DNA of 64,000 nt from the NCBI GenBank assembly GCA_036785705.1, contig JAWUZG010000159.1:1488001-1552000 (forward strand). Direction: 5' to 3'. The stretch is from Acanthornis magna. Lineage: Eukaryota > Chordata > Aves > Passeriformes > Acanthizidae. The notes under the pieces are model-generated. The model saw only the letters and a list, made by a program, of their open reading frames with translations, was not told where the DNA came from and made no database searches. Within the stretch, counting starts at the first letter, position 1; each line of letters opens with the position of its first letter. Positions 2,301 to 58,805 of this stretch are shown piece after piece. The translations under genes and the position numbers were made by a program.

Positions 2301-5300
2301 GGGCGGCGGCGGAGACCGGGGTGGGATCCGGGGGAGGCGGCGGGGGGGCGGTGACAGCTGACAGCGGCCCGCCCGAAACTTTCCGCGCCGGTAAAATGGC
2401 GCCGCGATGGGATAAACTTTGGGGGGCGGGAGGGGGGGCGTGTGGCGGCGGGGCGCGGGGAGCGGTGGTGGGTCACATCACCCGCGCCCCCGGGGGGATC
2501 CTCTCTCCTGGATCGCAGCCCGTTGGGATCTTCCAGGGATCTCCCGCCGCGGGGATCCGCCCAGCCCCGCCCCGGCGAGATCAGCTACGATCCGCTCGGA
2601 GCGGGATCCGCTTGGAGCGGGATCGACTCGGGGCTGGATCACGTGCGATCTCCCCGGAGTGGGATCCACTTGGTGCCGGCGCTCAGGCTGTGGGTGCCGG
2701 GGTCTGGGATCGGCCTGCCAGGGACAAGTGTGCTCCCAGCTCTGGGGATACCCGCTGGATCCCGGGTGATCCGCTCAGCGCGGGATAAACTTGGGATGTG
2801 GATTCACGAGGTGTGGATCTCTACCGGGGTGTGGGATGTGGGTGCTGCCACCTTAGAGCTGCGTTGCCAGGAGGGTGTCAGGTCGTCTCCTGGCTCCGTG
2901 GAGATCCCTGCTGGATCCCTGCTGATGCTCAGCCCGTGGGTGGTGGTGCTGGGAGCAGCTTCGCAGGGGGATCTGCAGAGTGCTGGGGAACTCCTGGCTG
3001 GATCCTATTGCCACTGGTGGGATCCACTTGGGATCTGCTCCAGAGGGACCCCTTGAGGGGCTGGCAGGATCCCACCACAGCCCTGCCTGGAGGCGCTGAT
3101 CCAGCTCCCCGGACCCACCTCCCCATCCCACCGAGGTCAGGGGGATCCCCGTGGGATCCACTGCGGGGGGATCCCTGCTGCCCGCCGCCGTCTCTCCCGC
3201 AGGCTCCGTTGGGACCCGAGGGCTGGCTGGGGGAGCCACCGTCGCGCCAGGACCCGGCCAGCCAGGAGGCCATGCTGCGGGTGCTGGACGCGGGGCTGGA
3301 GCGCTGCCTGGCACTGCACTCGGCCGTGCAGTGCATCCCCGTGCCCCGGCACAGGTAGGGACACCGGCACGGCCACCACCCTCCCGCCGGCACTGGCCTC
3401 GCTGCTGGAGCCGGGATTTTGTCTGCTGGCTGCAGGAGGACTTTGGCCGCTGTTGGCCATGCCGGGATCCCCGGCAGTGAGTGGCTGTCCTGCTGTGGCA
3501 GCTCCAGGGACTCTCAGCTGGGAGCATCACCATGTTATCCGTTTGCAAAATGCTTTTGGGTGCTCTTGACCTCTTGCTTTTTTTTCTTAATCTAAATTTT
3601 TTATAGTTATTTTTCCACCTCAAGGAACTGTTTGGCCCCAGCCGAGCCATCCCTGCATCCCTGGAAGGATTGCAAGTGCCAGTACCCTCCGATGCAGTGC
3701 TGCCCACAAGCACGGAGGATTCCCCCCAGTGTGGCACAGGCAGTGGCATTCTGGCTGCCTGCCTACACCTCTGCCTGCGCTGCTGCCTGTGCCGTGCCCA
3801 GGGGGATTCTAGACGGCTGCTGGGATGATCCCTGCAGGGGTCAGCAGCATCTCAGGGTGCTGCAGGGTGTGGGACACCCGTGGGTGCCTTTCCACCTGGT
3901 GATGCCCTCAGCACAGTGTGGCCACTGATACTCTGTGCCACCCATGTACCTCCACACAAACCACCCCGGGGTGGGTGCAGACCACCGTGGGTGGGAGGTC
4001 CTGGCACCTTAGCAGGGGAAGGAGAGTGATAGAGGGTCCCAGGGGACCTGTCCATCCTGACACAGCCCCTTCTGCTCTCACTGGCAGGAAGCTCTCGGGC
4101 AAGGCAGGCATCGATGAGGTGATGGCAGCTGCGGTGCTCACCAGCCTCTCCGCCAGCCCGCTGGTGCTCGGCCATCCGCCGGCCTCTCATGCCCCAGGTA
4201 AGCATGTCCCTGTTCCCCCCCCCATCCCTGGACACATGTCCCAAGGCAGGACCTGACATTCCTCTTCTTCTTCCTCACCAGAGCCTGGTGGTGAGGTCTG
4301 GAAGGAAGTTCCTGCCATGTCCTCCAGCTGCAGCAGCAGCAGCAACACCAGCGGGGACTGGAGCTGGGACCCCTCCAGTGACCGATCCACCCCCTCCACC
4401 CCCTCACCCCCCCTCTCCAGCCACGTCCCCAGCACCTTCCTGCCTGGCCCACTGCCAGATGAGGGCCCTGATGAGCCCGATGGCACCCACTTTGTCTTTG
4501 GAGAGCCCACCCCACGGAAGAGGAAGGTGGGATAAAGCTGGGGATGGTGATGGGGGAGAAGTTGGGCTTGGGGAATACTGAGGATGGGGATGAAGAGGAG
4601 GATGAAGTTGGGGGTGGGGATGAGGCTGGTGATGGGGATGAGGTTGGGAATGGAGATAGTGATGATAGGGATGAGGATGAGGAGGATGACATTTGGGGTG
4701 GGAATGAAAAGGAAGGTGAGGTTGGAGGTAGGGATGACAGTGGGATGAGTTTGGGGATGTGGATGATGATGGGAATGAGGTTGGGGATAACAGGGAAGTT
4801 GGGGCTGGGATGACAGGGGGATGGAGATGGGGTTGGGGGTGATGATGGGGATGGGGCTGCCAGCCTGACGCCTCTTTCCTGCAGAACTCCACCAAGGTGA
4901 TGTTCAAGTGCTTGTGGAAGAGCTGCGGCAAAGTCCTCAGCAGCTCCTCAGGGATGCAGAAGCACATCCGGACTGTGCACCTTGGGTAAGCACGTGGGGT
5001 CCCCCTGGACACCCCCAGACCCCCTGGCACCCCCTGCAGGGTCCTGCCATGCCGGGGGAGAGTGTCCCAGCTAGCCTGTGCTCTCCCTGCAGCCGCAAAG
5101 CCGACCTGGAGCAGAGCGATGGCGAGGAGGATTTCTACTACACGGAGCTGGACGTGGACGTGGACGCGCTGACGGATGGGCTCTCCAGCCTCACTCCGGT
5201 CTCTCCCACCTCCTCCGTGCCTCCCGCCTTTCCCGGCCCCGAGGCTCCTCCGCTGCCGGCGCTGACAATCCCTGACCTGGCGCTGGCCTCCCCCTGCAGC

Positions 5301-7257: not shown

Positions 7258-7309
<52 letters not shown>

Positions 7310-11806: not shown

Positions 11807-12193
11807 CTAAGAAATCCAGGTAAAATCCTTGTCGTTCTCCCCAGAGTTGTCCTGCTCCTGCGGGGAGTCGACATCTTTGTCATCATCTAAAATCACATCA
11901 TCCTGCGACATCCCCACGTCATCCTTCCACTTGATGTCGTCGTCGTCTCCCATCTCCTCGTCTCCTTCCACTTTGATGTCATCGGGGTCTTCCATGTACT
12001 GCCCTTCCCCGGGGTAGCACTCGTCTGGGGACCCTTCTCCGCCGTTGTGGTCCAGGTGCCCGGCGATGCCGCGGCCGGAGCAGTCGGCGCAGACGCCGTG
12101 GCGGCGCGAGCCGTGCTTGATCCCCACGCTGGCCGCCGACATGAACACCCGGTTGCAAACCTTGCAGACGTATTTTTTATCTTTGCTGTGGAC
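11807..12193 (-). CDS. ZBTB46: ZBTB46 coding exon 4 (last): end of finger 2, finger 3, acidic tail
   Basis: Acceptor CTTCTTTTCCAG at 12194, stop TAG at 11809-11807. It encodes [20 protein letters not shown], a degenerate finger with C-x2-C-x13-H-x4-H spacing, a second Cys pair (GVCADC), and a strongly Asp/Glu-rich tail. Phase 0 at the acceptor matches the exon ending at 14483. Confidence 0.95.
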   Translation of the reverse strand, partial: VHSKDKKYVCKVCNRVFMSAASVGIKHGSRRHGVCADCSGRGIAGHLDHNGGEGSPDECYPGEGQYMEDPDDIKVEGDEEMGDDDDIKWKDDVGMSQDDVILDDDKDVDSPQEQDNSGENDKDFTWIS

Positions 12194-15100
12194 CTGGAAA
12201 AGAAGGAAGATCACAAAGGTGAATGTCAGCAGTGATGGAATGAGAGCTGCTCCCTCTGCAAAGGCAAATCCACAGCTGCAACCTGAGGTCACAACTGGAT
12301 TTTACCGTGAGCTCAAACCCGCCACGATTAATTCAACCCTGCAGTGATGACACACAATGGAAAATCCTTTGGGACTGCCTGTTCATCATCACATTTACAG
12401 TTCTGAGAGGAACTTTTCATCACAATGTTTTTTCTTCCTGTTTCTCTCTGTTTTTCTGGGGTGTATTAGCTGTGTCACACCAACCACCAGGAGGAAAATG
12501 TTAAAAAGAAAAAAAACCCAACAAATCACAATCACCGGTTCTGTACAGACCAGAGAACAACCCCAGTCAAAGCAGCGTTAATGTCATTGTGATTTAGTGG
12601 TCTCCATCCTGATCCCACTGCTGTCCAGGACCAAAGAACAGGAGCGCTGGGAATGCCTCCTGTCTCTCCCAAAACACACACCTGAACTCACTTCTCACCT
12701 TATTTCTGACTACTTTGGTTTGACACAAATGTTTCTCTTTGCTGCAAGGATCCTGTGCATATGGAGCTATCACAGAATATGTGGCCAGGAAAGGAAGTAA
12801 GGAAAATGCTCTGCAGGACACAATAATTCACTTCCAGAGTCAAACTGCACTATTCAATGAGCAAAATTACATACTTTGAGAAGCATAAAACACCTGATTA
12901 AAGGTAAAATCTGTCCCTGGCCATTTTTGCCCTGGAGGCAAGGCAAGGAGCTTGTCAAATCACTCAGCTGCTCCTCTGCCAAAGGAAACCAGAGCAGTGA
13001 GAACTCCCAAATTCCACCACAAGGAGCCTCATGAGGAACTTTCACTTACACATATATACATGTAAAATACATATTGATTTTATTTATATACAGAAAAGTT
13101 CAGTTAGAAGGGACACATGACAATCTTCTTGTCCAACTGCCCGGCTACTTCAGGGCTGCCCAATATGTATTATAAATATATTTTTTTCTTTCTTCTTTTA
13201 TATACTAACACCACATGGGGACAGCACAGGCACTCAATGCCCTGTGTCTGGCACTGATCCTCAGGAGACACTTTAGGAAGTGGTGTAGAAGCACACAAGG
13301 ATCCAGTGCCAGTGGTTTGGGGCTGTCCTGAGCAGCCTTGGGTACAAATCACCAGCCCCTAATCCTTTTTAACTCGTTTCTTCTTTTCATGCTCACAACA
13401 GCCTGTGGGAAAGGTTTTGCTGATTAAAGCCCTTCCTTTTATTTTAAAGCAGCTGCCTGGATGCCTGCTCCTGCCTCAGCATGGGATCACCAGCTCTCAC
13501 CACCTGATTCTCCACAGCCCTGCGCTCTGGGATACTCAGCTGAGCTAAAGCTCTTTGGGAAGAGGACAAATTGACCCATGGCAGCCCCTCAGCCCTCACT
13601 ACTGCAGGACACTGGCTCAGGCTCTGTGTTGCTCCAGTCCCAGCCGTGTTCAAAGCCTGTGAGTGCTTCTGATGTGCTGTGGCTGCAGGTTCCCCTGCTC
13701 CGAGCCAGTCCCCACGACATTCTTCTACTGCATCACGCAAAGGCATTACATTTTATTGCTTTTTTTTTAAAGCAGTTGGACAGGGCTGCTCAGAGTCATC
13801 CGGCAGGATCTAGCAGTATCACTCACTTTCAACTTGTACAAGAATGATTTTCAGGCATCAAAAGCTTAATAGGAGAACAGAAGGTGGCCGGGGTGCAGAA
13901 TAAGGGCGAAAAGAGCCATTTAAAAAAAGAAATTATGAAACAGGTACTAAACCAATCTGTAATTATCACAGAATGGTTTGGGTTGGAAGGGACCTTAAAG
14001 CTGATCTAGTTCTGACCCCCTGCCATGGGCAGGGACACCTTCCCCTAGAGCAGAGTTAAAAAACTGATCACCTCTCTCCCTTTTTTTCAATGCTGACAGT
14101 TCAGTCAGCAGGTTCAAAGTGAGCCCTATTTCCTGGATGCAACTGAACAGAAATTAATCTTATTCCCTTTACTGCCAAATTAGTAAGTATTAAACACAGA
14201 AACAGCACTTGGCCCTCAGTATTGGGCAGTGCTTTTAGAAAGATGATATTCTAACTGATTAAATGCCAATATTCCAAGGAAGAGGAGGGGAAATATGCTG
14301 ACAACATCCTAAATTTATGAAAAAAAAAATTTAAAAAGGGAAAGTTCTCAGAAATAAAATGCTGGAGGCAACCAGCAGGCAGAGCAAGGTGCTCCCTGCT
14401 GCAAAACCAGCAACAGATCTTGAAACCTGTGCGCTTGCAGCAGGACTGAGCTCAGGGCTGACTCCCCCAGCACTGCCCTTACCAAGGTGTGGCGCTTCAT
14501 GTGCTCCCGGCGGGTGAACTTCTTCCCGCAGATCTCGCAGGGGTAGGGCCTCTCTCCCGTGTGGGATCGCATGTGTCTCTTCAGGATGCACTGGTGCATG
14601 GCTGAAAAGCTGCAGTACGGGCACTTGAACTTCTTCCTGATCACTGTGAACTCGTTGACTGCAAGACAGAAAGCCAGAACATACAGATTAATCTCAGAAT
14701 GTCTCAAAACAGCCTTCTCATTGACTATTTCACTATTAAATTAGTTCGCTGTGAAATCACACTCTCGCCCCTTAACCACCTATATATTTTTAATCCTTAC
14801 GCTGTATTACTGGCCATGTATTATTAAAGCTAAGAAGTTGAGTACTTCCACCAGAGCAGCTTTTGAACAAGTTAACACACAAATATTTAGCGACAGCCTG
14901 TTGCAGTCATTGCTTGCTGAAGGGAAAATGAAGAGGGCTGGCAACCTGTTAAGAGTTCTGATTTATTATAAAGGATCTTCCTAAATATCAAGATCTAAAA
15001 TGCTAACAGTATTACTTGTGGAAGAAGCAGAGAGTCAGGAACAGAAGCCCCCAAAGGTGGCACCCCAGTAGGGCCAGCGTTATTTATGGGGTGATGCAAG

Positions 15101-18100: not shown

Positions 18101-21100
18101 ACCCGACTATAGAAAAAGAATTCCATGCTGAATTAAATTCTAAAACACAAGAAAAATGAGCAAACATGAAACCTCATTAAGCCTTATAATGTAATGAAAC
18201 CTTTTAAAGTTTGCTGAAATTGCTTTTTCTGGCATCTTACTTTCCCAAGTCAGACAAATCCTTCCCTGCTGCTCCCAAATTTCCAGATAAGATTCATTGG
18301 GTTACAACTTTGTTTTCTGGCTCAGCTTTCTCCTTTCTCGCTTGCTGATTATTTAAGAGCAAAATAAATCATGAGGCAATTACTCTGACATCTGTCACAA
18401 GGGAAGCTGACACTAAAAACCACACACATTCACAGACAGCCCAGATCTCCGATGCCAAAATGTCAACGGAACAAGAGCGGAAAAAATGATTGTGACTTTG
18501 CAAAAACCATAAAATTTAAACTCCAAATTATTAAAGTGTACTACAGTGATTATACAGGAACTTATTGTCAATTCAGACTGCAGCCTGCTCAAATGAAGAG
18601 TAAGAAGTAAGCCAAGCAGGGAAACTCCGGCTTCCCAGGCCTGGCATGGCATGGAGCTGTCTCCCTGAAGCTCTGACTCCCAGCAGGAACGGGGGAGCAG
18701 AGCTGCACCAGAATACACCTGTTCCTTCTCTACAAGCCCAAGGGCAGCAGAACTGATGGGCTTTCATTCACCTTTCCACAGGAAAGGCCTGGGGAAGAAT
18801 CTCCCCACTAATTCCACATTGTGCACAAAGAATTATTTGTCATTTTTGTATCCCTGAGATGCACCAGTATCATGAGAAAGAACTTCCCTGAGGAACTCTA
18901 AAGAGCATTTGTAGAAGTCAGGTTTTTTTCCTCCTCAGCTGTCTCTCACACTGAGGAAAGCAACCCCACATGCTGACAAGCTGTGCTGCACACAGAGCAG
19001 CTGGGAAGCACTGCTCTTAATTATGCTACTTTCATTTCACAGTTACCATAATCTGGTTTTGTATGTAAATACATAGTAAGAGACACAGAAATATCTAATT
19101 AAAAAAAAAAAAAAAAGTGGATTTCATAGAATGAAGTAGGAATTACAGATTTCTACGCACCAGGAACAGCCATTACTGATTCTGTATGCACAACCCAAGT
19201 TACAATTAAATCTATGTAAGGCCTCCTTCCTCTGCTTTAACACCACCACGCTCAGCCTGGCTAACTTAATTACAGTAATTAAACCAAACAAGTCACAAAA
19301 ATGTACAGAATCCCTGAAAACCACAGCCATACTCCAGGATGATTTTTAAAAAACAGCCCTGAAAATACTGAAACACAGTATCAGTAGAATATACAAGCCT
19401 TGCAACAACTTTCAAGCCCAAATAGAATACCCTATTGCACATATGACCAAGCAGCATGTTTTTCTCTTTTGGAAGATATAGAAGACCAGACTTTACAAAC
19501 AGCAACTCAGTGCTTCCACAGCTCCTAAGCTCATGGTGAAAACCCCTGGAATGTCCGAATGGTCTAATGGACAGAGCACTAGAGCAGAACTCAAAACTGA
19601 ATTCAATTATTAATTCTATTGCTCGCACTTCCAACAACCTGAGGGATGTTATTTTCCTGGGGAACTGGAGGAAATCACCATTTCTTTTATAAAGCACTTT
19701 GAGATCTACTGATAAAACAGTTGAAGGTAGTGTCAGAATGCAGAATGAGCACTCCAATAAAACAGCCAAAATGCCAATTTTACGGACCCCAAAAAGTTAT
19801 CTTTGCACAAAAATTGCACCAAGGCTGCAGTGACACAGCATCTGGAACCAGCACAGCATCAACTGATCAGCTTTGGGGAGTTACTCTATGGATTAGAACT
19901 GCGGAACATTTATTTGCAGCGCGAGAAGCACGGAACAATTTGCTTTTCCTAGTTCAAGGAAGTGTCTCATATACAATAACAACAGCTACACATCCTCAGG
20001 ATCCTCGCTGGGTCCTACACTGTCCAAAAGCTCCAGCCCAGCCAGGTGGGCAGAGCCCAAGTAACACATTTTCACGTGGCTACTGAGGTTCTTCTGCGTG
20101 CCGAAGCCCTTCCCACAGCAGAGACAGACAAAGGTGCGCTCGCTCGAGTGCACAGACAGAAGGTGCCGGTTTAAGTCTGTCTTGTCACGGAACAGCTTGG
20201 CACAGGAAGGACACTGCATCTTCTTACAGTGGAAGTGGATGGTCTTCTCGTGCCGGTCCATGTTGGATTTCAGGGTGAAGCTGGCGGGGCACTTGGAGCA
20301 CTGGAAGCGGCCGAGCTGCCCGGCGGGAACGCCATCGGCGAGGCCGGGCCGGGAGCAGTCGAGCACGTCGAAGGGGAGAAGCATGGAGAAGGCGTGCTCG
20401 TGGATGTGCTCCTTCAGCTCCTCAGCACGCTGGAACACCCTCCTGCAGAAGCCACAGGTCAGCCTTTTGGCCAGGGCCGAGTCCAGGAAGGCTCCGTCAG
20501 CGGCGGCATCCGCGTCCTCGGATCTCGGGAAGCTCATGTCTGAAACGGAGCCACAGATACACACGCATGGGTCAGCCCCTTCTGGTACAAAATAACGACA
20601 GCTTAAAAATGTGTTTTTCGCTCTGCTTACCTGAGTCAGAGTTACCAAACTGCCACAGCGCCAGCAATCCATCGTAGGCAGCCTGCAAGGGGAAAGCACA
20701 GGGAGGTTAAGGCAGGCACTCACAAGAACCTGTCCTGAAGGCAGAGCTCTGACTCTCATCCCTGTCACTGCCCTCACCCCTTCTCTAAGGGAGGCTCAAT
20801 CATTTGACCTGCGTGCCTTTGCAAAGCTTTCACTGCCAAAGCAGTGGACTGGGCCCTTATCTTGCAGGATTTGGTGTTTTGGAGACAGTAATCAACATCC
20901 CTGTTTAAGCCTTGGATAACTATTCAGTTTCCAGTCTCACTAAGCACCCGCAGCTCCCACTCAGGCCAGTGGGAAATGCTGGACAGAAAATTCTCCTCCA
21001 CAGGTTCCTTCCCTTTCCAAGCAGAAGAGTCTGTAGAACACAAACACCTTCTGCATATCTCTCCCTTTCTGCAATGCCCTCTGGCACTGCTGATCCAAAT

Positions 21101-24100
21101 TCTAAATAAAAGCTGATTTTATCTTCTTTTTTTTATAAATCCTTTGCGATATGCCAGCGTGTGGCAGATGGCAGCCCTGTATGAGGCAGAGGCGTGCTGC
21201 AGCCTCGGCAGGTCTGTGCAGACCAGCTCACTTCGCTCTACGGGGACTGCAAACGAAAATCTGTGTTTCCATCCTTTTCTTTAATAGAAGTAAAATACCA
21301 TTCAAAAATATTAAGAATAAGAAATGCTGCAAAAAACTACATATTTTAGGTCAAAGTTCTGACTTCTGTAACAGAGAGAGCCAGCCCACTTCTGTCTGAA
21401 TTTAGACAGTGACGAGAAACTCAAATGCAGAACACCAGAAGTGAGCAATGGGTGGCTGAGGTCCCATGCCACTATTACATGCTAGTGTGCAATGCTGTGC
21501 AAGTGAAGGGATTTACAATAAAAAGGGCATTTATATTTTAAAAAACCCAGAGGTTTTTGAACAGAAATTCTGTTGAGGTAAGGTAGAAAGACTAAAATTG
21601 GGACAGCACTAGTCCTGACCCTCAACAGACTTCTAGTTTTAAAATAACCTGTATTTTTAAAAAAAAACACCTCACAGATTAAAGTACAAGGTAAGAGGTC
21701 TTTCAAAATACTCCTAACTGGGGAGGATTTGATCAAACAGACACCTTTGCATTTCAAATTCTTTGTATTTCCCCCTCCTCGATCTTACCTGGGTTGAGGA
21801 AGGCACCTCTCCTTTTATCCCCGTTTCTGGTGACATTTCACCAGAAGAGCAGATCCCGGGGGGGCTCTGAGTGGCAAGGTGTGCTGAAGGCAGCGGGGGA
21901 GATGGTGCTTCCACTTTGCCATCACTTTCACCCCTTGAAGGATTCGAGTTGGTGCCAGGCCCTGGGGAACACAGGAAACGAATCTCACCCACGTGAACGA
22001 GCACCAGCTGGTGGCTTTAAAAACGGCCTCGCAAAGGCAGCGCCCCAGCACTCGCAGCTCATCTTCTGTCAGTGGGAGGGAATGCAGCAGGACAGGGATG
22101 CCAGGCTTTTGGTCTTTCTGGTTGATGGGTTGTTTTTTTTTTTTTTTAACCAGCCTCCCCACCCAAATGTCTGTGTGTACCGGAGTGACATCGCAGGGCT
22201 CGGTCACTACAGAGTCCGTCGGGAGAAAGAAGCACAGTGCAGCACAAATATCCAGAGCAATCACATTTCTCTTGGAGAAGCACCATTCCAAATACATTTC
22301 CATCTTTAAGGAATGTACACAGACACTTCATGTCTCTAACTTTCTTGAAAGTTTATGTCACAGGTTCAGATCTCAAGATCTGTCCGTGGTGGTTTATTTA
22401 ATATTGGACTGTCAGTCCTCGATCTCAAAGTGCTTTACAAAAGATGGGAAAAAGGATTCCTGTCATTCTATATTTAGCAAGGATGGAAGTTCAAATATTT
22501 GTACAAAACTGTTCAATTATACCTGACAGTCATTATAGTCTAAAAATCTCCCATAATTCAAAAGGAAAACATGCTGTATCCGGCCCTCGCCTACACTGTG
22601 GCAACAGGCAAATGGAAAACAATATTCCAGAAACTGCCCTGGGAATCAATGACAAAGCTAAACACAAAAAAAGACTGTGTCATCAATATCAGTGTACATT
22701 ATAAATTATTATACAAACTTTAGCACATGCCTTGACTGAATATTGGAATGACATACTGAGCAGGTTGTTCTTTTTGAAACGCAAGGAGGCAAAACCAGAA
22801 GCAAATATGGCACAAAATAAACAAATTCATATTTAAAGCACTCTATGCCCTAAAGGCTTTTCCATTTCTAGCACAAAAGAGTCTGATGGAGACCTCCAGG
22901 GATATAAAAAACACTCTCTTTAATGCAGCTACAAATAACAAGTCACAGTTTACACTGTGTCCGAATACAATGTGCTGTGATCTGGGTGACAACAAAGCAC
23001 TCAAGTGAAACCACACCAAGGTTTTGCAATGTGAACAATCCCAAACCCTACTTTTTTATCAGCTATCAAAGGAAATTCTGCTCTTGTGCCACAAGCTGGA
23101 TGTTTGATTCGCTTTCCTCTGCTTTGATCGCAGATCGATATCTTTCCCAGCTTAGTTAACTCTATTCAGCTGGGATAACAATTTCCTTCAGGTGCTGCTC
23201 ATCTGTTGCTGTTGTCATTTAAAAGTAGGACAGCAAAATGCCAGAAATTCAAGATAGGAAAAATACAGGAAAAAAAGGAATTTATCAGTATTTCCTGTCA
23301 GAAACTGTTACCAGGAATCCAGCTCTACAGGTCCATAGCAGAATTCCTGCCTAGACAGCCACACGTTCCTTTTTTTACTTCTGAACATCCCAAACTGATT
23401 CAAACTGCCCCAAAGGCATCTCTGGGTTACACTTCTTTAAACTAATGGTATTTTAGCACACAGTAAAGATGAGCCAGTGGGGCCTGGCTTGATGAATTCT
23501 TTATTAGCACCTTCCCAGAGTTCCACAGGTTCCCAAAATAAAAATTCTGCATTTCTTAAAGCAAAAATTACAGCTAAAGAATGAGCAGTGAAATAGAGCA
23601 CAGAGAAAAAATAAACTATCATCCAGGGTGTACAAACACAGAAAGATGTACAACACAACAAAGATGAGTTTTCAAACAATAATCAGTATTTATTTAGTTT
23701 CAACAACTGCAAGTAACACAAGAAAAAACCCACATCAATGACCAACACTTTGTACACAAGAATGCAGATTTACGTCCATTCTGACTAGTAGTGTGAGAAA
23801 CCTTTTCCCTCCTAAACTTGCACTAAAATGAATTTTAATTAAAAGTATTTTAACTTCTAAATCAGGAATCAAAAATGTTTTCCTTCAGTCAGCTCTGCAC
23901 AGGGGTTTAGCAATATTTGTATGAATACAGAATTCTTGTGACAGCTGGACAGTAAAGTATTGTAGAAAACAGAAAGGCAAAGTTATTATATCTCATTTAA
24001 AATTGCATCCATTCTCCCCTAAGTTTTTGCTTACCATGTACAAAAATTCCGCACCAAACTGAGTATCTTTAGCTTCTTCTTGGGAAAGTTGACCGCTGTG

Positions 24101-27100: not shown

Positions 27101-30100
27101 TAACATGTAGTACTCAGAAAGCTCCTCCTATTTCACAAACGATATATCTTCTCAGAGTATTATTAAAATACAGCATTAATAATTTTGTTTTCTTTATGCA
27201 CTAGAGAATCAAGCTGCAATGAAGGAAATAGAAAAATACGCTGAAAAATCAGCTGTCCACACCTAACGGGTCACATCATCTGTCTCCAACAGATCACCAG
27301 TAGAAAAACACTCATTTCCAGGTGCAAGTATAACAAAACAATCAATAGCTGCTCATTACTTACAGGTCTAAAATTAAACTGCAAGAACTAAAGATAATGC
27401 AATCTACAACATCTCAATTGTTTCCACAGAGACAGGAGCAACATTCAAACTGTTCAACATCAGTCAAGTTTGGATTCAAAACCTTTCCCATAACGACTCA
27501 AATGTTTTGCATTTTGTTTGTAAGTACCGTAGCGCAAAGTAGCAAAATAGAAATTTGAGGACAAGCTCTACAGGCTGAATATTTTCTTCTGTGACTTCAG
27601 CAGCTAACATTAAAGTTCGATCAATATCAGACAAAAGTTTCCAAATTTTACGGAAAGTGGGATTAAGCAGGACTTAAACCTGGATATAAACACATCAGCA
27701 GCAACAAACAAGGCGGTGACCTTCATTCTCTTCCCACTAAAGATTTCCCTTAAAGTGTCAGCAAACAAAAAAAAAATAGAAGAACGCCAACTTACGGGAG
27801 AGCGAGTGCGTGCCTTTGGGGAGGTACTCGAAGAGCAGCGAGCTGTCCTCGCCCAGCATGTCGGCTTTCAGCGACAGCAAACTGTTCTTACTCATCAGAG
27901 CCGCGCGCAGGTTGGCGACGGTGGCAGCCTGGAGCGCGTCCTCCTTGTCCGGAGTCAGGGGCTGGTGGATGTAGCTGGACTCTCCGCCCAGCAGCGCTTC
28001 CTCCACGTTGGTGTAGGGGTCCGGCCGCTCCACCCTGCTGTCCGAGCTGCTGGGCTCTGTCCCGGCCACATCAGCACCTGCGGGACAGGAGATGCTGTCA
28101 GGGACACAGAAAACTCCCAGCGCCAGGACCTGCCTCGCCGCGGATCCAGGTAACACAACCAGGGATGCAGCAACACTTATTTTGGCTTTGCTTTTCGAGT
28201 GGGAGTGAAAAGCTGCTTCTCACCCTCTTTTTTTCCTGCCTCACAGCTGGGGATTCTGTTTTTCCAGCCCATTCCCTCCTGCCCCACCGGCTGGGCTTTG
28301 GTTCAGTACCGTACGCTACAAAGGCAGGGCAGAGGGAGGGGATGTGGATTCTATACACAACCTGGATAAAACTATTTATCTTAAATTAAGATTTCGGGAT
28401 AGTTTATCAGTACTGAAATTACATTCAAAGGTTTAAGTTCTGTTTTCTCCCTAATTTTACACTCCAGTAGTCCAAGTTTTCATTCTTTTGTTTCCTCCCC
28501 ATGATGAAGGTTTTGAAAAGTCCAGTAATAAAGAGCCTCTAATAGAGAGATGCTGAGTATAAATCCCTAGGGGTCACTTCTCTAAAAAATACACAGTAAC
28601 CAGTGGTTCCCAGCATATATCACAGGGTGAGTTTCATACCGAAGTGATACAGTTTAAAAAAGAGAAAGATACAGATCAGCTGCTCTTCAACATGTAACTA
28701 CAAAGAAACTGTATAAAAATATAACATATCAGTAATAAATATGTCAATTACTGAACCCAAACAAAACTGAAAAAGCTATGATAAGGTAAATTCCTTCCTA
28801 TGAAAACACAGTTTATTTTTGTATTTTCGGGGAAGTCTAGTTGAAGAGCCTCTTTTGTTTGAACTTCGACTCTCTTATCAACTGAAATTATTTATTTATT
28901 TTTATGTAAAGGAAAGTGACTCTTAGACTCCTCTCTATTCTTCACATGAAACAACAAAAACTACACACAAAAAGGGCTGTTAGTCCATTTTTAAAGTGCA
29001 TAAAACAAATTGCAATTACCTACTCCACAATCTGCAGCAGCAAACACAGCTGACACACTCAAAGCCCAGCTGAGCACCTGGCAAACGCGGCTGAAGCTTC
29101 CCAACAAACTTATGCCTTTGTGGCATTTCTCCTATCAATGTAGAGGGAAAAAAATCCATATCCAAAGAGAAGGCACAGCTAATGAGCTATCAGATGGAGA
29201 AAGAAGCTGTTTTGCAGATCCTGAATATTTTATTGCCTCCTAGTTTAAAAGAGATTTAAATCTACTTAATGCAAGAGGGAACTATTAGAGCTCAAACCAG
29301 TGGTACAACACGTACAAAATGAATACCTGCTGCCTTCAGAAATTCACCTTGCACTCCTCAGGGCAAGGAATTCAGGTGTTGTCCACACACACAGCACTGC
29401 AATAAACTCCTGGACAGCAGCTCAGGAGAAGGGAGGAGGCAGAGTGTGACAAAGCAGCACTCGGCTTCCACAACTTCAAACCAGGGCAAGGCACTAATCT
29501 GCAGAGCCTTATTAAAAAATGCTAATGAGGACACTGGTGCCGTGCCCACCTCCTGTAACCTGGAAAACAGCTGAAGGAAGATCATTATTTTTATCTCCAT
29601 TTTACAGGTGGTGGCTGCCACAGAAAGACGTGGGGACTCGCTCAAGGTGTCCAGCGTGCGGAGCAGGAGCAGCCAGCGAATTTCCCAGTCCCAGCCCAGG
29701 GCATATCAGATTCCATAACACATTCGGATTGGCTTTACTAAGCTGCACTGTTCTGCCACTACATCCTGCTGTTGAGTTGTCCCTTTAAAAAACAAACAGC
29801 TTCAAAGCAAACAATAAGGAGAAAGCAATCATAGGCAGAGTGCTCCCACACCCTGGAGATGTAGGGAATGCCCAAGGCTGGGGGCTACAGACACAGTAGG
29901 AAGTTCATAAATGTGAACTACCAGAGATGCTCTCTGTTTAAAACAAACCATTTTCCCTCCTCCGTCTGTGTTTTGCTTGTACAGTTTCATATTATCAGTT
30001 TTATTAAATCTCAGCCAAGCAGAAGAATTCAAATGCTTTGAATTTTTACATATTTTGTCATCCCTCTGTTAGCGGCTCACAGGGATATCCACTTTTCTAG

Positions 30101-42100: not shown

Positions 42101-43751
42101 ATGAATCAAATGGGACAGTTATCTCGAGACAAAAAAATAACTACTGAAGATTCAAAGGAAGTCAAGGAAACAATTTTCTCACTGGCTACACGCTTTAAAT
42201 GCAGCCACTTGTCTCAGACCACAAGTAGTCACACATCAAAATACACTTGAAGCCATAGTAGTGCCTCAGAAAAATATGTTCTTGAGAGCTACTAAACACT
42301 TATCCTGCCATTACCAGCAACAAGCTGTGGTGGTTTTCTTACCCAAGAGAAAGTGACACCTGAATATCAGGAAATTCTGAAGATGGTATCGGCAAGACTA
42401 AATTACACCTGTGTGTGTGGTGTAATTACATCATCAATATATGGTGCAAGGAAAATTCTTCAACCTTGACATCAATGTGCACCCCTACTAAAATAAATTC
42501 CAATCCTTCCTCTCATTAATTCCAAAAATGGAATTAATTCCAAAAATGGAATTAATGAGAGAGTGGTGTTTTGGGGGTGATTTAGGCTGCTCAAAGCCAA
42601 AACAAAACTACCCCTTTCAGAGGAGAACCAGCCTCCGTCAAGGCTCCTGACTGAGCCATACAGTGCTCCTTCTGAATTGCTGGCAACACAAGTTCCTACA
42701 TTTTTCTATTTCTGGCAAGCTCCTATTTCAGAGGCTGATAAGATCATCCCGTGAACAGATCTAATTAACTCCACGTTTTCAGTTTCATCCCCAAAAACTG
42801 GAAGAATGACTTACTTGGGTCTCGACTGCTGTACGGCCATCCTGAGGCAGGTAAAAGGGACAGCACAGGAGAATTTGCCCTGCTGTCATCCTCCACTTGC
42901 TGCGTAATATGTCTCACAGTTTCTTTGTTTTTCCTGTTCTTCCTGCGGCCCGTGGGCTGCCAGCCATCCCCCACTCCTTGCTCTGAGAACCCACTCTGTA
43001 TTGCACTATCCTTGGCAGAATGCAGCTCGCCCCCTCCGTAATGGGACGGCGAGACCTGCTCCTCTTTGATACGCAAAGACCCATAGCCCATGTCACTAGC
43101 CCAGAGAGACTGGGACGAAATGTCTTCGTGGCTGTCTGGTTTTGGTTCTTGATCCTCTTTCCCATAACTACTCCCTCCCTCATGGCAGCTGGCAATGGCT
43201 GAGTCCCCGGAGGAGTTTGCAGGGCTCGTTCTCCGAGCTAACCAGGGGGATATACTCCTGCCAGCCACCACTGCCGAAATCAGAGCGTCCGTGCTGCTGC
43301 TGGAAGGGGCTCCCAGCTCGTAATCCACGAGGTCCTCCGAGGCATCAGACTTGATGCTTATGTCCAGAGCTGCTTTGATGAAGTTGTGGCAGGCCTGCAC
43401 GATGTCTGTCATCTGCAGGTAGCTGGCGGCCGACATCACCTCGATGACGTTCCTGCTGGTCAGCGCCAGGTGTGCGGAATACATGAAGTCAATGATTGCC
43501 TTAAAGCCCTGCGCGGTGACGATGTCCAGGTGGGTGACTGTGGCCTGGTCAGAGGTTTTCTGGACCTGGCAGTAGAGGGTTTTGAAGTAGCGGCTGCTCC
43601 CCAGGAGAACGTTTTTGTGAGCCTTGAAGATCTTGCCCTCCACGATGATGCAGACGTCGCAGAGGATTCCGTGCTGCCTCTGCTCGTTCAGCTCCCGCAG
43701 CAGGTGACGGTAGTGGGAAGCAATCTCCATATCTTCCTTTCGGTTATTCAT
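11807..43751 (-). CDS. ZBTB46: ZBTB46: BTB/POZ zinc-finger transcription factor (4 coding exons)
   Basis: Joined on the minus strand: 43751-42815, 28077-27796, 14658-14483, 12193-11807. This gives 1782 nt, 593 residues, against 589 for human as I remember it. A BTB/POZ domain fills about residues 10-130 ([20 protein letters not shown] onward, ending [10 protein letters not shown]). The central region is Ser-rich with an IKEEQVSPS sumoylation-like site and a basic RRKNRKNKE. Finger 1 uses Cys419, Cys422, His435 and His439. Finger 2 uses Cys447, Cys450, His463 and His467, with the last His coming from the next exon. A degenerate third finger (Cys475/Cys478...His492/His497) precedes an acidic tail ending DKDFTWIS. 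The protein is a nuclear repressor known as a marker of classical dendritic cells and also expressed in endothelium. Start chosen at ATG 43751, which matches the conserved [11 protein letters not shown]-terminus. Confidence 0.95.
13090..13170 (-). mobile_element. CR1 LINE 3' fragment (antisense to plus strand)
   Basis: The plus strand reads TTCAGTTAGAAGGGACACAT and then CTTGTCCAACTGCCCGGCTACTTCAGGGCTG in diverged form. This is the reverse complement of a CR1 3' end of the subfamily with a 'tccaactgcctgaccacttcagggc'-like motif. It is old and truncated. Confidence 0.6.
13967..14050 (-). mobile_element. CR1 LINE 3' tail
   Basis: ATCACAGAATGGTTTGGGTT, then GGAAGGGACCTTAAAG and CCCCCTGCCATGGGCAGGGA: the reverse complement of a standard avian CR1 3' end. 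No coding part remains. Confidence 0.9.
14483..14658 (-). CDS. ZBTB46: ZBTB46 coding exon 3: fingers 1 and 2
   Basis: Acceptor CTGTCTTGCAG at 14659, donor ACCTTG|GTAAGG at 14483. It encodes [20 protein letters not shown] and the two canonical fingers joined by the TGERPY linker. It enters in phase 1 and leaves in phase 0, so the last His of finger 2 comes from exon 4. Confidence 0.97.
15618..15690. repeat. AT dinucleotide tract with internal duplication
   Basis: (TA)n runs interrupted by a word duplicated about 30 bp apart (AATGCAATATATAATATA). It is a simple-sequence expansion. Confidence 0.9.
19545..19735 (+). mobile_element. Ancient tRNA-derived SINE (MIR/L2-tail type)
   Basis: The segment TGGTCTAATGGACAGAGCAC resembles the A-box head of a tRNA-derived SINE ('...ggcctagtggatagagcac'). 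About 140 bp later, ATAAAGCACTTTGAGATCTA matches the 'aagcgctttgagatc' tail shared by MIR/L2-like amniote SINEs. Head and tail share one orientation and plausible spacing. It is heavily diverged, so the subfamily is uncertain. Confidence 0.55.
19909..19914 (-). terminator. Candidate poly(A) signal for the alternative zinc-finger exon
   Basis: AATAAA on the minus strand, 72 nt beyond the stop codon of the candidate terminal exon. This would give a very short 3'UTR. The hexamer is canonical, but AATAAA is common by chance in AT-rich DNA. Confidence 0.4.
19986..20539 (-). CDS. Alternative cassette exon C: three C2H2 fingers plus one C2HC finger
   Basis: Acceptor GGCTCCGTTTCAG at 20540, stop TAG at 19988-19986. 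After an acidic start ([16 protein letters not shown]) come four fingers: [20 protein letters not shown]+HEH (C-x2-C-x12-H-x3-H), [20 protein letters not shown]+KTIH (H-x4-H), [20 protein letters not shown]+LSVH (H-x4-H) and [20 protein letters not shown]+KMC (C2HC). Linkers are not TGEKP. About 27 residues, including the Leu/Pro-rich [15 protein letters not shown], separate fingers 1 and 2. The tail ends in acidic PSEDPEDV. The reverse strand is also partly open, but has no domain. Confidence 0.85.
19986..21961 (-). CDS. Candidate alternative 3' zinc-finger cassette inside ZBTB46 (3 exons)
   Basis: Three minus-strand exons, A 21961-21789, B 20682-20631 and C 20539-19986, sit in ZBTB46 intron 3 and join in one frame (173+52+554 nt). 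Exon A begins in phase 1, like the two upstream ZBTB46 coding donors at 42815 and 27796. Joined to the BTB exon alone the product is 571 residues; with the 282-nt exon included it is 665. Exon C encodes three C2H2 fingers and a final C2HC finger, unlike the canonical ZBTB46 fingers. I see no start codon or upstream exon belonging to a separate gene. The exons are much more GC-rich than the intron around them. What is seen: open frames, splice motifs, phases, finger signatures. What is inferred: use as an alternative end of ZBTB46. The alternative is an unrelated nested gene with unseen 5' exons. Confidence 0.72.
20631..20682 (-). CDS. Alternative cassette exon B (52 nt)
   Basis: Acceptor TTTCCCCTTGCAG and donor CTCAG|GTAAGC flank a 52-nt exon encoding [17 protein letters not shown], an aromatic/Leu-rich peptide of unknown role. 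It enters in phase 0 and leaves in phase 1, which is what exons A and C require. A microexon this small is persuasive only because both splice sites and both phases agree. Confidence 0.72.
21789..21961 (-). CDS. Alternative cassette exon A (173 nt)
   Basis: Acceptor GTGTTCCCCAG, donor ACCCAG|GTAAGA. It encodes a Pro/Ser-rich linker ([20 protein letters not shown] ... [10 protein letters not shown]) containing a possible sumoylation-type IKGE. It enters in phase 1 and leaves in phase 0. As a low-complexity linker it has no domain of its own. The case rests on splice sites, phase and position. Confidence 0.65.
22365..22455 (-). mobile_element. MIR/L2-like SINE tail remnant
   Basis: The plus strand reads CGATCTCAAAGTGCTTTACA followed by AAAGATGGG: the reverse complement of the 'tgtaaagcgctttgagatc' tail of ancient amniote SINE/L2 elements. 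Short and diverged. Confidence 0.45.
26823..26966 (+). mobile_element. CR1 LINE 3' tail with terminal octamers
   Basis: Sense CR1 3' end: GACAAGGCTTGGGGCAACCT, GAGGTTGGAGTAAGATGATC, CCCTTCCAACCCAAACCATT, then a degenerate GATTCTATGATTCATTCTAT terminal repeat. Confidence 0.93.
27796..28077 (-). CDS. ZBTB46: ZBTB46 coding exon 2 (282 nt, symmetric phase 1-1)
   Basis: Acceptor CTGTCCCGCAG at 28078, donor CTCCC|GTAAGT at 27796. It encodes the linker [20 protein letters not shown] through [20 protein letters not shown] to GTHSLS, which lies between the Ser-rich region and finger 1 and is conserved with mammals. Both ends are phase 1, so skipping it would keep the reading frame. Confidence 0.95.
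29545..29730 (-). mobile_element. MIR-like SINE remnant
   Basis: ATTTTTATCTCCATTTTACA, then GACTCGCTCAAGGTGTCCAG, then TTCCCAGTCCCAGCCCAGGG. This parallels the antisense MIR order 'tccattttacagatg...gacttgcccaaggtcacacag...cccagg'. It is strongly diverged. Confidence 0.55.
33050..33700 (-). mobile_element. Long CR1 LINE 3' fragment, diverged
   Basis: The plus strand is the reverse complement of the CR1 ORF2-end/3' region. Recognisable words in order: TGTGAAGAATCTCCTCCTTTC, ACTACCTCTCATCC, TTCTCTTCTCCAAG, CCCTCAGCCTCTCCTCACAC, CTTGTCAAAGTCTTTCTTGG, CCCAAACTGGATCC, GCAGAGCTGCTTTC, GCACGGGGTTATTC, GCAGGACTTCACACTTG, AACTTGCTGAGG. Several internal deletions are evident. A 212-codon open frame on the plus strand runs through it in the wrong orientation and is fortuitous. 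Confidence 0.85.
36308..36350. repeat. GGA/GAA purine tract
   Basis: Uninterrupted AGG/AGA triplets on the plus strand. Such homopurine mirror-like tracts can adopt triplex DNA, but no function is implied. Confidence 0.9.
42510..42561. repeat. 52-bp perfect nested palindrome
   Basis: Structure: arm CTCTCATTAATTCC, spacer AAAAAT, centre GGAATTAATTCC (itself a perfect 12-bp palindrome), spacer AAAAAT, arm GGAATTAATGAGAG. The two 14-bp arms are exact reverse complements, and the two spacers are direct repeats. It can fold as one long stem or as two adjacent hairpins. Confidence 0.95.
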
Positions 43752-43784
43752 TTGGAGATCTTTATGTTTCCTCTTCCACAAGTC
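42815..43784 (-). CDS. ZBTB46: ZBTB46 coding exon 1 (BTB exon; ATG at 43751)
   Basis: Acceptor CTTCCCCCTGCAG at 43785, donor GACCCAA|GTAAGT at 42815. Bases 43784-43752 are 5'UTR and the CDS is 43751-42815 (937 nt, phase 1 out). It encodes the BTB/POZ domain and the Ser-rich linker to [10 protein letters not shown]. The start ATG has a weak context (C at -3, A at +4), but the protein following it matches ZBTB46 from residue 1. The open frame upstream to the acceptor has only a TTG, so no longer start exists in this exon. Confidence 0.96.
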
Positions 43785-46740: not shown

Positions 46741-46990
46741 GGATGGATGGAGGGATGGATGGAGGGATGGATGGAGGGATGGATGGAGGGATGGATGGAG
46801 GGATGGATGGAGGGATGGATGGAGGGATGGATGGAGGGATGGATGGAGGGATGGATGGAGGGATGGATGGAGGGATGGATGGAGGGAGGGATGGAGGGAG
46901 GGATGGAGGGAGGGATGGAGGGAGGGATGGAGGGAGGGATGGAGGGGATGGAGGGGATGGAGGGGATGGAGGGGATGGAGGGGATGGAGG
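46741..46990. repeat. Compound GGATG minisatellite with three repeat zones
   Basis: Twelve exact copies of GGATGGATGGAG (46741-46884), then five copies of GGAGGGATGGAG (46885-46944), then about five copies of the 10-bp GGGATGGAGG (46945-46990). All three plus frames and one minus frame are open because of the repeat. The peptides are not genes. Confidence 0.98.
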
Positions 46991-49900
46991 GAGGGATGAC
47001 TTGTTCATCTCTTTAGGAAATAGAAAATAAGGTCAGATAAAAGATACCAGGGAATTTTTACTAAACACACACACAAAATAAATCTGTACAGGACACCTTT
47101 CTGGCCAGTGAGGTGGGCACATGATGGCACTCTGAAGTAAGCATTTAAGTGGATACTCCCGTGTTCGGTGTAATCAATGAAATGTAACCGTTTCCAAATC
47201 AGGAATTATTACTGGAGATGTCTTGATCTTCCCCTGTCAGAAGGTCTGCTCCCTCACACACATCGCTCCACATCCAACATCTGTCACAGCATTGTACCTT
47301 TTAAACGACAGGTCTTTGGGGGAGAAAATTAAATACGCCTCAAATTCAGAGGAATTAATTAGTTTTCTGTCTACCCATGTCAAACCAGAACATCCGTTTA
47401 ATGTCAAGGATCACCGGGGAATTAATCCAAGTTAAATTTAAGGCAATTTGCTAGTAGTTAAAAATTCAGGAAGCTTTAAAACCCTGTGCTCTTGTGTTCC
47501 AATTTTACATGCTGTTTTGTGGCTTGTTGATGGTTTGTTTTTCTTTCCTTTTTTTTTTCCTTTTCCCTGGTAAGGATATTTATTTCCACTTAAAAAATGT
47601 TGTGGAAAGATTTCCTCAGGAAAGCTGTACCCTTCAAACTTCTGGAGAAGCACAGTGAAGACAGAATAAGCTGTGGAGATTTCTTAGAAACAGACCTCAA
47701 AGATCAATGATGTATTTTTTGGTTTATCTTAGGTCTTTTTAGAACATGAAGGTTTTCAAAGTTAAGCATCTACTTGAGTTCTTTAGGCCACATGGCCACA
47801 ACACAGCTTTCCAGGAAGCCAACGAACCATGAAAGCTCATCTGAAGATTTTCCACAAAATAAAATTGTAGCAGATCAGACTTTCTTCATAAGCCAATTCA
47901 CAGGCAGTACAGTGATTCAAGTCTATTACTTCTCCAATAATAACTAAAAGAATTATGTCCCAAATGAAACCATTGCACGTAACAGCAAAAAGAACACAAA
48001 GTGAGCAGATGTAAGAGTCACTTTCATGCAAACTTCTGTCAAGATACAGGCCTGGTTTTATTTTTCATATTAAAAAAGAAACCCTGGTCTTAAATTAAGC
48101 ATTAATAATTTATTTAATCCTTAATCCCAGCTAGACTGAATTTATGGAAGTGGTTTATTTTGCACTATCAGTACAGTTATTTAAACATGAAAACAGCACC
48201 TAATCACACAGTAAGAGTCTAAATAACACAGACTTCACTTCCCATTGGAAAGAAGAGTAACAGCAATATTTATTGGCACACTTCTCAGCATACACTGCAG
48301 GAATAAGTCTCCTGACCAAAATCTCAACACCACTAAAATTAGGGGGCACAAATTTGCTGCATCTAAATCTCAGTGCATTGCTTAAATTTTGACAAAAAGT
48401 CACAGATGAGAAATGAAGTGCACACAAAAGCCTCTACAGAGCAGTCCCCTGGGAAATAGTGGGGACAAAAATAAACTTCCTTCCCTCAGAAAGAAAACAG
48501 GGGAAAAAAAAAAAGCCTGGAGGTTTTTTTTTGGGGGGGTTGCTGTTGTTCGGATTTGTTTGGTTGGTTTACTTTTTCCTCTTTCACAATGTAAGTGAAC
48601 TGAAGATTTAAACTACATGGCACTTCATCTGTTTCAATTTTCTCAGCAGTTTCTACACTTAATACCAAGGACCCGAGTTAAAGAGCACCAAAACACTCAC
48701 TAGTGCACTCCTCCACCACTCTGCTCCCTAGAGAAAACATGCCAACTGGAATTTAACCAAAAATGTGTTGCTTCCTCCCCCCTCTCCCTTCAGAGAAAAG
48801 TAAAAACAGATTAAGGAAGAACTCCAATTCACTCCAATGCTTTATTGCACAAAAACCCAACAAACACACCCCACTTCTCTGCTTCCCCTGTGTCCTGTCC
48901 ATGTCTCCACTCCCAAGACATTCCAACATTTTTTAAATTCCTCTGCAAAGGAACTCTGTAAGGTGAGATTGGGCTTGAAATGCCTCCTTGCACAACAAGA
49001 CACAGTGTGTATGCAAGTTTCACTTTTATCCAATTAAAGTTAACAGAAATGCACGAGATTCCTACTCTCCATCTGCCTTGTGCTGAAAAGAATGGAGAAC
49101 AAAACCCCTTAGGAACTGCAAAGGACAGCAAATGAGAGAAAAAGGAGACCCAGGATATTCATGGATTGTAACTCCCTGCAAGGACACTGCTCAGGAGCTT
49201 TACAAGCACAAATCTCCACAAGTGCAGTGTTTTCTCACAAGTGTCTTTGAGGAAGAGCAGCACAGAATTCTGAAAGAGTTTTAGTTGTTATTTTTAATTA
49301 TTTTAATTAATAATAGTAGATAAGACCAAATTATATTAATATGTTACGCTTTGTAAAAAATAGGTAACATAAGTAACAGCTTATGAAAATGAGCAGTTGC
49401 CAAAAAAAGAAACTCTTCTGCCCTATTCTGATTCCCAAAACCGATCATCGTTGTTTTAAGTTGGTCATTCCAACCACAACTCTGAATTCAAGCACAAAGA
49501 GGCAGATGTTTGTAAACAAACCAAAGCAGACCCTTGGAGCAGAGAGGTCACTCAGAGCTCAGGGTTTCACGCAAACAACGTGGACCACTTTTCCCTGATG
49601 ACTGGGGATGGGAACGTTTAATTGCAGCCCAACAATGCATGTTCAGCCTCATGGGCTGGGAGTCACAGGAAGAAAATAAAAGTTTCATCATTCAGTTTGA
49701 GAAGTACTACAGAAGTACACAAAGGGCCAAGGATTTGGGAGGCAAATGGTTTTCAGTAAACTTAGAGAAAATACTAATTCTATTTTATTACCCAATTTGA
49801 TAGGCTCACTCAATCGTCAGCGATGGTAGGGCAAAAAGAGCCTCAAGTCCCTACAAAAATTTATTAACATTGGTCTGATCAGGATTCACTAAAATTTCTC

Positions 49901-58757: not shown

Positions 58758-58805
<48 letters not shown>
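58758..58805. repeat. A48 homopolymer plus GA-rich tract
   Basis: Forty-eight A on the plus strand followed by GAGGAGAGGGAGAAAGAGAA. It lies in ZBTB46 intron 1 about 0.7 kb from exon 1. Its length may be unstable or an assembly estimate. Confidence 0.95.

What the first reader, a model, noticed from the sequence alone, without database searches (positions are those of the whole stretch)
19986..21961. A second, different zinc-finger module nested in ZBTB46: possible one-BTB/two-finger-set switch
Three consecutive minus-strand exons (21961-21789, 20682-20631, 20539-19986) inside ZBTB46 intron 3 have consensus splice sites, agree in all phases and end in a stop followed by AATAAA 72 nt later. 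The first acceptor is phase 1, as are both upstream ZBTB46 coding donors (42815 and 27796), so the cassette can replace the canonical fingers without breaking the frame. It encodes three C2H2 fingers and a C2HC finger with no resemblance to canonical ZBTB46 fingers 1-2, so the DNA target would differ while the BTB oligomerisation/corepressor domain is kept. Established parallel: Drosophila lola, broad and fruitless attach alternative zinc-finger ends to one BTB. I do not know of this for ZBTB46.
Basis: partly seen in the sequence, partly recalled or inferred. Interest (0 to 1): 0.88.

Follow-up and report, generated by a model that had tools for sequence, protein, structure and literature searches.

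The report
Second zinc-finger ending inside ZBTB46
Inside an intron of the ZBTB46 gene of this animal lies an intact set of exons encoding four other zinc fingers that could be spliced onto the same BTB domain, so one gene could make two regulators with different DNA targets; no RNA or other-species data were available to prove it is used.

Summary
Observation confirmed; interpretation likely but unproven. Minus-strand exons A (21961-21789), B (20682-20631) and C (20539-19986) lie in ZBTB46 intron 3. A and B are two of only three 45-300 nt segments on the minus strand of the 64 kb with acceptor and donor both at 10 bits or more; A is open only in the frame that ZBTB46's phase-1 donors require. 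C is clearly coding and holds four intact fingers, three C2H2 and one C2HC. AATAAA follows the stop. Spliced after canonical exons 2-3 the cassette gives a 665-aa BTB-zinc-finger protein; canonical is 593 aa. New: A+B (225 nt) is frame-neutral, so C can also join exon 2 or 3 directly; A alone or B alone truncates the protein. Intron 3 upstream shows no CpG island and no in-phase coding first exon at the thresholds used, against an independent nested gene. No other copy was found in the genome, nor in the ZBTB10-like and three ZBTB8-like loci examined. Weak points: A and B lack coding-type codon usage; no transcript or cross-species evidence (protein database off).

The parts
42815..43784 (-). 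ZBTB46 canonical exon 2 (start codon at 43751; BTB/POZ domain); ends in a phase-1 donor
   Evidence: Pfam BTB PF00651 E 2.1e-27; splice signals; frame
27796..28077 (-). ZBTB46 canonical exon 3 (linker); ends in a weak phase-1 donor (6.3 bits)
21789..21961 (-). cassette exon A, 173 nt, S/P-rich linker with one SUMO-like IKGE; phase-1 entry, phase-0 exit
   Evidence: acceptor 10.8, donor 10.9 bits; open only in the phase-1 frame; IKGE
20631..20682 (-). cassette exon B, 52 nt; encodes [17 protein letters not shown]; must be used together with A
   Evidence: acceptor 14.0, donor 11.6 bits; frame combinations
19986..20539 (-). cassette exon C, 554 nt coding part of a terminal exon: four zinc fingers, acidic tail, stop
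   Evidence: acceptor 7.1 bits, the weakest of the cassette
20394..20456 (-). cassette finger 1 (C2H2), separated from the others by a linker
   Evidence: contact residues R,E,E,E
20235..20300 (-). cassette finger 2 (C2H2)
   Evidence: contact residues L,S,N,R
20148..20213 (-). cassette finger 3 (C2H2)
   Evidence: contact residues D,T,D,R
20064..20126 (-). cassette finger 4 (C2HC)
   Evidence: contact residues T,K,N,S
19909..19914 (-). AATAAA poly(A) signal of the cassette; a T/G-rich stretch begins some 50 nt further on (by eye)
14483..14658 (-). ZBTB46 canonical exon 4 (fingers 1-2), start of the exon group the cassette would replace; phase-1 acceptor
11807..12193 (-). ZBTB46 canonical exon 5, coding part (third finger motif, acidic tail)

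Best explanation
Exons A, B and C are an alternative 3' end of ZBTB46. SHOWN in the sequence: a same-strand cassette in intron 3 with consensus splice sites, an intact ORF with four fingers, a stop and a poly(A) signal, reachable in frame from both coding donors. INFERRED: in some cells the pre-mRNA is spliced from exon 3 (or 2) to A-B-C, or directly to C, and is cleaved shortly after the AATAAA. This gives a 665-aa protein (590 aa without A+B) with the same BTB domain but a different finger array, hence other DNA sites; when the cassette is skipped, exons 4-5 give canonical ZBTB46. The choice is probably set by competition between the acceptor of A plus the early poly(A) site and the distant exon 4 acceptor. 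Both products could dimerise through the shared BTB, including with each other.
For: Phase-1 entry shared by A, C and canonical exon 4. A and B are two of the three segments on the minus strand of the 64 kb with both splice sites at 10 bits or more; their donors (10.9, 11.6) outscore those of canonical exons 2 and 3 (8.8, 6.3; the exon 4 donor was not scored). The codon score of C exceeds that of all 3182 overlapping stop-free 60-codon windows of the introns, and its GC by codon position (0.58/0.44/0.80) resembles canonical ZBTB46 (0.56/0.42/0.75). All 16 zinc ligands are intact; in simulated neutral decay at 0.05 substitutions per site with indels at a tenth of that rate, about 0.15% of copies keep the ORF and all ligands. 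No second copy was found in the genome, so it is not a fresh copy of something still there. Upstream of A, intron 3 has no block that meets CpG-island composition and none of its 3 donors of 8 bits or more ends a phase-1 ATG frame of 15 codons or more. The module encodes fingers but no other domain seen by Pfam at E 0.01, and a BTB host would supply the missing effector.
Against: No RNA junction was seen and no second species could be compared. Codon usage of A and B is unremarkable: 12% of 3601 and 14% of 22208 intronic stop-free windows score as well, and GC by codon position in A (0.58/0.66/0.48) is unlike that of C. The acceptor of C is only moderate (7.1 bits, 95th percentile). The closest paralogs examined lack such a module, so there is no family precedent in this genome. 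An ATG two bases into C, or the one in A, would allow a separate short finger protein. Five phase-1 ATG frames of 16-49 codons ending in donors of 8 bits or more occur in intron 2.
Confidence: 0.72

Rival explanations
1. A separate small zinc-finger gene nested on the same strand in ZBTB46 intron 3, with its own promoter and non-coding 5' exon, starting at the ATG in A or the ATG two bases into C (183 aa).
For: C begins AC-ATG just after its acceptor; an in-frame ATG also lies in A; no junction to ZBTB46 is proven. Five candidate phase-1 ATG exons exist in intron 2.
Against: No CpG-island-like block between exon 3 and A (the block 27501-28000, which overlaps exon 3, has CpG observed/expected 0.84 but only 48% GC) and no coding first exon of 15 or more codons with a donor of 8 bits or more there. 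A same-strand nested gene would have to keep ZBTB46 transcripts from using its strong acceptors. It would be a finger protein without another domain seen by Pfam.
Confidence: 0.15
2. A recently dead alternative ending: once used, no longer spliced in this lineage.
For: A and B have no coding-like codon usage; no expression data; the paralogs examined lack the module.
Against: ORF, 16 of 16 ligands, five splice sites and the poly(A) signal are all intact; in the simulation neutral decay broke ORF or ligands within a few percent divergence.
Confidence: 0.08
3. C is joined directly to exon 3 or 2, and A and B are not real exons (or rarely used).
For: Direct joining is in frame; A and B lack codon-usage support.
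Against: A and B have stronger acceptors than C and stronger donors than exons 2 and 3, and such pairs are almost absent elsewhere on this strand. A+B is exactly frame-neutral.
Confidence: 0.05

Closest known systems
Drosophila lola, broad, fruitless (one BTB, many alternative finger ends)
   Same: One shared BTB-coding 5' part and alternative 3' parts, each with its own fingers. [quoted passage not shown]
   Different: Here only two endings, in a vertebrate gene, unproven by RNA. Broad, and fruitless as a case of alternative ends, are recalled, not checked. No homology between the fly and ZBTB46 fingers was tested.
PATZ1 (ZBTB19), a vertebrate BTB-ZF with alternative finger content
   Same: Alternative splicing of one BTB-ZF gene: four isoforms, all with the BTB domain, with four to seven C2H2 fingers (passage in PMC11354804).
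   Different: As described there isoforms differ in finger number; here the whole finger set would be exchanged.
ZFP64 (vertebrate gene with isoforms carrying different finger sets; recalled)
   Same: Exchange of finger exons within one vertebrate gene (recalled; a PDB entry named 'Zinc finger protein 64, isoforms 1 and 2' appears).
   Different: No BTB domain (recalled).
ZBTB10 and ZBTB8A/8B, nearest paralogs of canonical ZBTB46 in this genome (names recalled)
   Same: N-terminal BTB parts 40-57% identical and exon-4 type fingers 45-60% identical to canonical ZBTB46; a ZBTB10 finger structure matches residues 2-66 of the 100-aa canonical query, though many longer finger arrays score higher.
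   Different: No cassette-like module in the 50 kb examined at each of the two loci.

Membership tests
BTB-ZF (ZBTB) transcription factor, fusion product | N-terminal BTB/POZ domain in the upstream exons | tested here: met
   PF00651, E 2.1e-27
BTB-ZF (ZBTB) transcription factor, fusion product | C-terminal Krueppel-type C2H2 fingers | tested here: met
   zf-C2H2 with 4 stretches, E 2.6e-14; one of the four is C2HC
BTB-ZF (ZBTB) transcription factor, fusion product | both parts in one transcript | not testable with these tools
   frame-compatible in silico; no RNA data held
lola-type alternative 3' ends | shared BTB exons with phase-compatible alternative acceptors | tested here: met
   A, C and exon 4 all enter in phase 1
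lola-type alternative 3' ends | each ending has its own finger set, stop and poly(A) signal | tested here: inconclusive
   cassette: fingers, stop and AATAAA present; canonical ending: fingers and stop present, its poly(A) site was not examined
lola-type alternative 3' ends | alternative transcripts shown to exist | not testable with these tools
   no reads held; the paper listings seen give none
independent nested gene | own promoter or 5' exon | tested here: inconclusive
   no CpG-island-like block, no in-phase coding first exon in intron 3 upstream of A at the thresholds used; a non-coding 5' exon cannot be excluded
conserved functional gene part | purifying selection across species | not testable with these tools
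   protein database switched off; the viral and prokaryote contig collections gave no relative

The most novel reading that the evidence does not exclude
ZBTB46, the factor used to mark classical dendritic cells, has in this lineage (perhaps in more vertebrates) a true fly-lola-type switch. One BTB is joined to either of two unrelated finger arrays, and the 52-nt exon B acts as a gate: A+B or neither gives the second finger array, while A alone or B alone gives a finger-less BTB protein that could block both forms. Exon B ([10 protein letters not shown] in an acidic setting) might add an activation-like motif, so that the second form differs in action as well as in target.
Probability: 0.25. 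Interest if true: 0.82.

Novelty: new variant of a known kind. Interest (0 to 1): 0.62.

Why it matters
ZBTB46 is generally treated as one protein with one finger set (my general knowledge). If the cassette is used, expression counts, knock-outs and binding data for ZBTB46 in animals that carry it would mix two factors with different targets. It would also be a vertebrate case of the fly principle 'one BTB, interchangeable finger ends'. ZBTB46 is expressed in chicken XCR1+ classical dendritic cells and in putative plasmacytoid dendritic cells (passage in PMC10634274), so existing bird RNA data could answer the question at once.

Tried and rejected
Cassette as a repeat or transposon copy: rejected. 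DNA 20580-22300 (A, B and flanks) gave one match in the 1.48-Gb genome, itself (that search skips very common words), and exon C protein has one full-length match, next best 43% over 79 residues (218 matches; 150 of 4280 candidates were scored). The DNA search of 19700-20620 did not complete.

Cassette as a duplicate of the canonical ZBTB46 fingers or of a paralog's module: not supported. Identity to canonical fingers 1-2 is 5-8 of 21, contact residues differ, and in the ZBTB10-like and ZBTB8-like loci the matches better than E 0.01 all fall on their canonical-type finger exons.

Fold prediction of exon C from a single sequence gave mean pLDDT 36: useless, not searched further. Viral and prokaryote contig collections gave no relative, as expected. 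Rfam: 0 matches at gathering scores in the window. NCBIfam: 2 weak chance matches. Literature: 735 papers from 2012 on mention ZBTB46, 40 listed; 0 hold ZBTB46 with 'alternative splicing' and 'BTB-ZF'; 27 hold it with 'splice variant', 20 listed, none about this by title; of 65, the 15 listed do not mention ZBTB46; four peptide words from the cassette occur in 0 papers; some searches gave only the precedents and chicken papers cited. I opened passages of five papers; the alligator BTB survey PMC11477308 does not name ZBTB46. The library is open-access only, so absence in print is not shown. Whether RefSeq or Ensembl models of birds already contain these exons could not be checked.

Full report
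WHAT WAS CHECKED. The window lies in a 1.48-Gb assembly of 1515 contigs (C159:1488001-1552000). Canonical ZBTB46 reads on the minus strand as exon 2 (43784-42815, BTB), exon 3 (28077-27796), exon 4 (14658-14483, fingers 1-2) and exon 5 (coding 12193-11807), giving 593 aa. The gene name rests on my recall of the protein; the BTB match and the finger match to a ZBTB10 structure (not the top-scoring row) agree with it.

THE CASSETTE. Scored with recalled consensus matrices, A has 10.8/10.9 bits (acceptor/donor), B 14.0/11.6 and C 7.1 (acceptor); the canonical donors of exons 2 and 3 score 8.8 and 6.3, the canonical acceptors of exons 2-4 14.0, 11.8 and 10.0. Over the minus strand of all 64 kb only three segments of 45-300 nt have both sites at 10 bits or more: A, B and one that is closed in all frames. 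On the plus strand there are 12: five at 4.4-5.6 kb, where another gene seems to lie, one antisense to exon 2 (43419-43529, open in one frame), and six others, of which five have no open frame. In 200 first-order Markov copies of intron 3, A-like segments appeared 0.065 times per 13 kb, 0.015 in the needed frame, and B-like segments not at all.

CODING EVIDENCE. Exon C is clearly coding by codon usage (0 of 3182 overlapping intronic stop-free 60-codon windows score as high) and by GC at codon positions. It holds four fingers with 16 of 16 ligands: finger 1 apart, fingers 2-4 with 7-residue linkers. Exons A and B by themselves are not distinguishable by codon usage (12% and 14% of background windows score as well), and GC by codon position in A (0.58/0.66/0.48) is not coding-like. 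The 100 residues up to finger 1 are rich in S, A, P and G with net charge -8. A simulation of neutral decay shows that ORF plus ligands rarely survive even 5% divergence (about 0.15%). Since no close copy was found in the genome, the module was probably inherited rather than freshly inserted, and so has probably been maintained by selection. That step is inference; no second species was available.

A, C and canonical exon 4 all enter in phase 1. Exons 2-3-A-B-C give 665 aa, 2-3-C 590 aa, 2-A-B-C 571 aa and 2-C 496 aa, all with the full finger set; joining A to C or exon 3 to B gives truncated BTB proteins (465 and 419 aa after exons 2-3). A+B joined to exon 4 stays open through exon 4, while A alone joined to exon 4 stops soon (all). 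So A+B is a frame-neutral 225-nt unit and its two halves are mutually dependent.

ALTERNATIVE ENDING OR SEPARATE GENE. Intron 3 upstream of A has 3 donors of 8 bits or more and none ends a phase-1 ATG frame of 15 or more codons; intron 2 has 17 such donors and 5 such frames of 16-49 codons. In 500-nt blocks no stretch between exon 3 and A looks like a CpG island; the block 27501-28000, which overlaps exon 3, has CpG observed/expected 0.84 but 48% GC. A's acceptor requires an upstream exon. The simplest upstream exons are ZBTB46 exons 3 and 2, in phase. A non-coding first exon with initiation at an ATG in A, or two bases into C, cannot be excluded; I give this 15%.

RELATIVES. Canonical ZBTB46 fingers find, in the same genome, a ZBTB10-like gene (C63:25379097-25395529) and three tandem ZBTB8-like genes (C374, about 1.902-1.928 Mb) (names recalled). 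In the 50 kb fetched at each locus, the cassette's matches better than E 0.01 all fall on their canonical-type finger exons. Among the genes examined the module is thus peculiar to ZBTB46: gained after that split, or lost in the others. A whole-genome search with the BTB domain did not complete.

FUNCTIONAL READING. Contact residues (-1,2,3,6) are H,C,I,R and R,E,H,R for canonical fingers 1-2, against R,E,E,E; L,S,N,R; D,T,D,R; T,K,N,S for the cassette, so a different DNA site is expected (inference). Both endings carry a SUMO-like motif (IKVE in exon 5, IKGE in A; a further IKEE lies in exon 2), which may be chance. The short exon B peptide resembles acidic-aromatic activation motifs by eye only (recalled comparison).

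KNOWN OR NEW. The principle is known from fly lola (passages of PMC6329818), and vertebrate PATZ1 varies its finger number by splicing (passages of PMC11354804). The chicken C2H2 survey PMC11476951 does not mention ZBTB46 in its main text and kept one isoform per gene, preferring those with an effector domain and the most fingers (passages), so such a form could be hidden in its table, which I did not see. In the listings of the open-access library I found no report of a second finger set in ZBTB46 (most of the 735 papers were not opened). I file it as a new variant of a known kind, unproven at the RNA level.

Noticed in passing
window 4909-4980 (+) and surroundings 4.4-5.6 kb: A finger-like stretch [24 protein letters not shown] and strong plus-strand splice sites look like SLC2A4RG (ZNF395 family), the known neighbour of ZBTB46 (recalled); Pfam found nothing in two overlapping pieces typed from a plus-strand frame there.
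   Followed up: partly
window 46741-46998: A 12-nt tandem repeat (GGATGGATGGAG, 21 copies, 91% matches) upstream of exon 2.
   Followed up: no
G000 C374:1902129-1927840 (loci L014-L017): Three tandem BTB plus finger genes of ZBTB8 type; human has two adjacent ones (recalled), so one may be a local duplication.
   Followed up: no
G000 C2, C3, C57, C155, C157, C163, C331, C484 and others: Many finger matches recur within and among contigs with the same score and frame length (about 300-540 codons), seen as background hits; this suggests a large recent expansion of zinc-finger genes.
   Followed up: no
window 7258-7307 and 58758-58805: A perfect AAT microsatellite and a 48-nt poly-A run.
   Followed up: no
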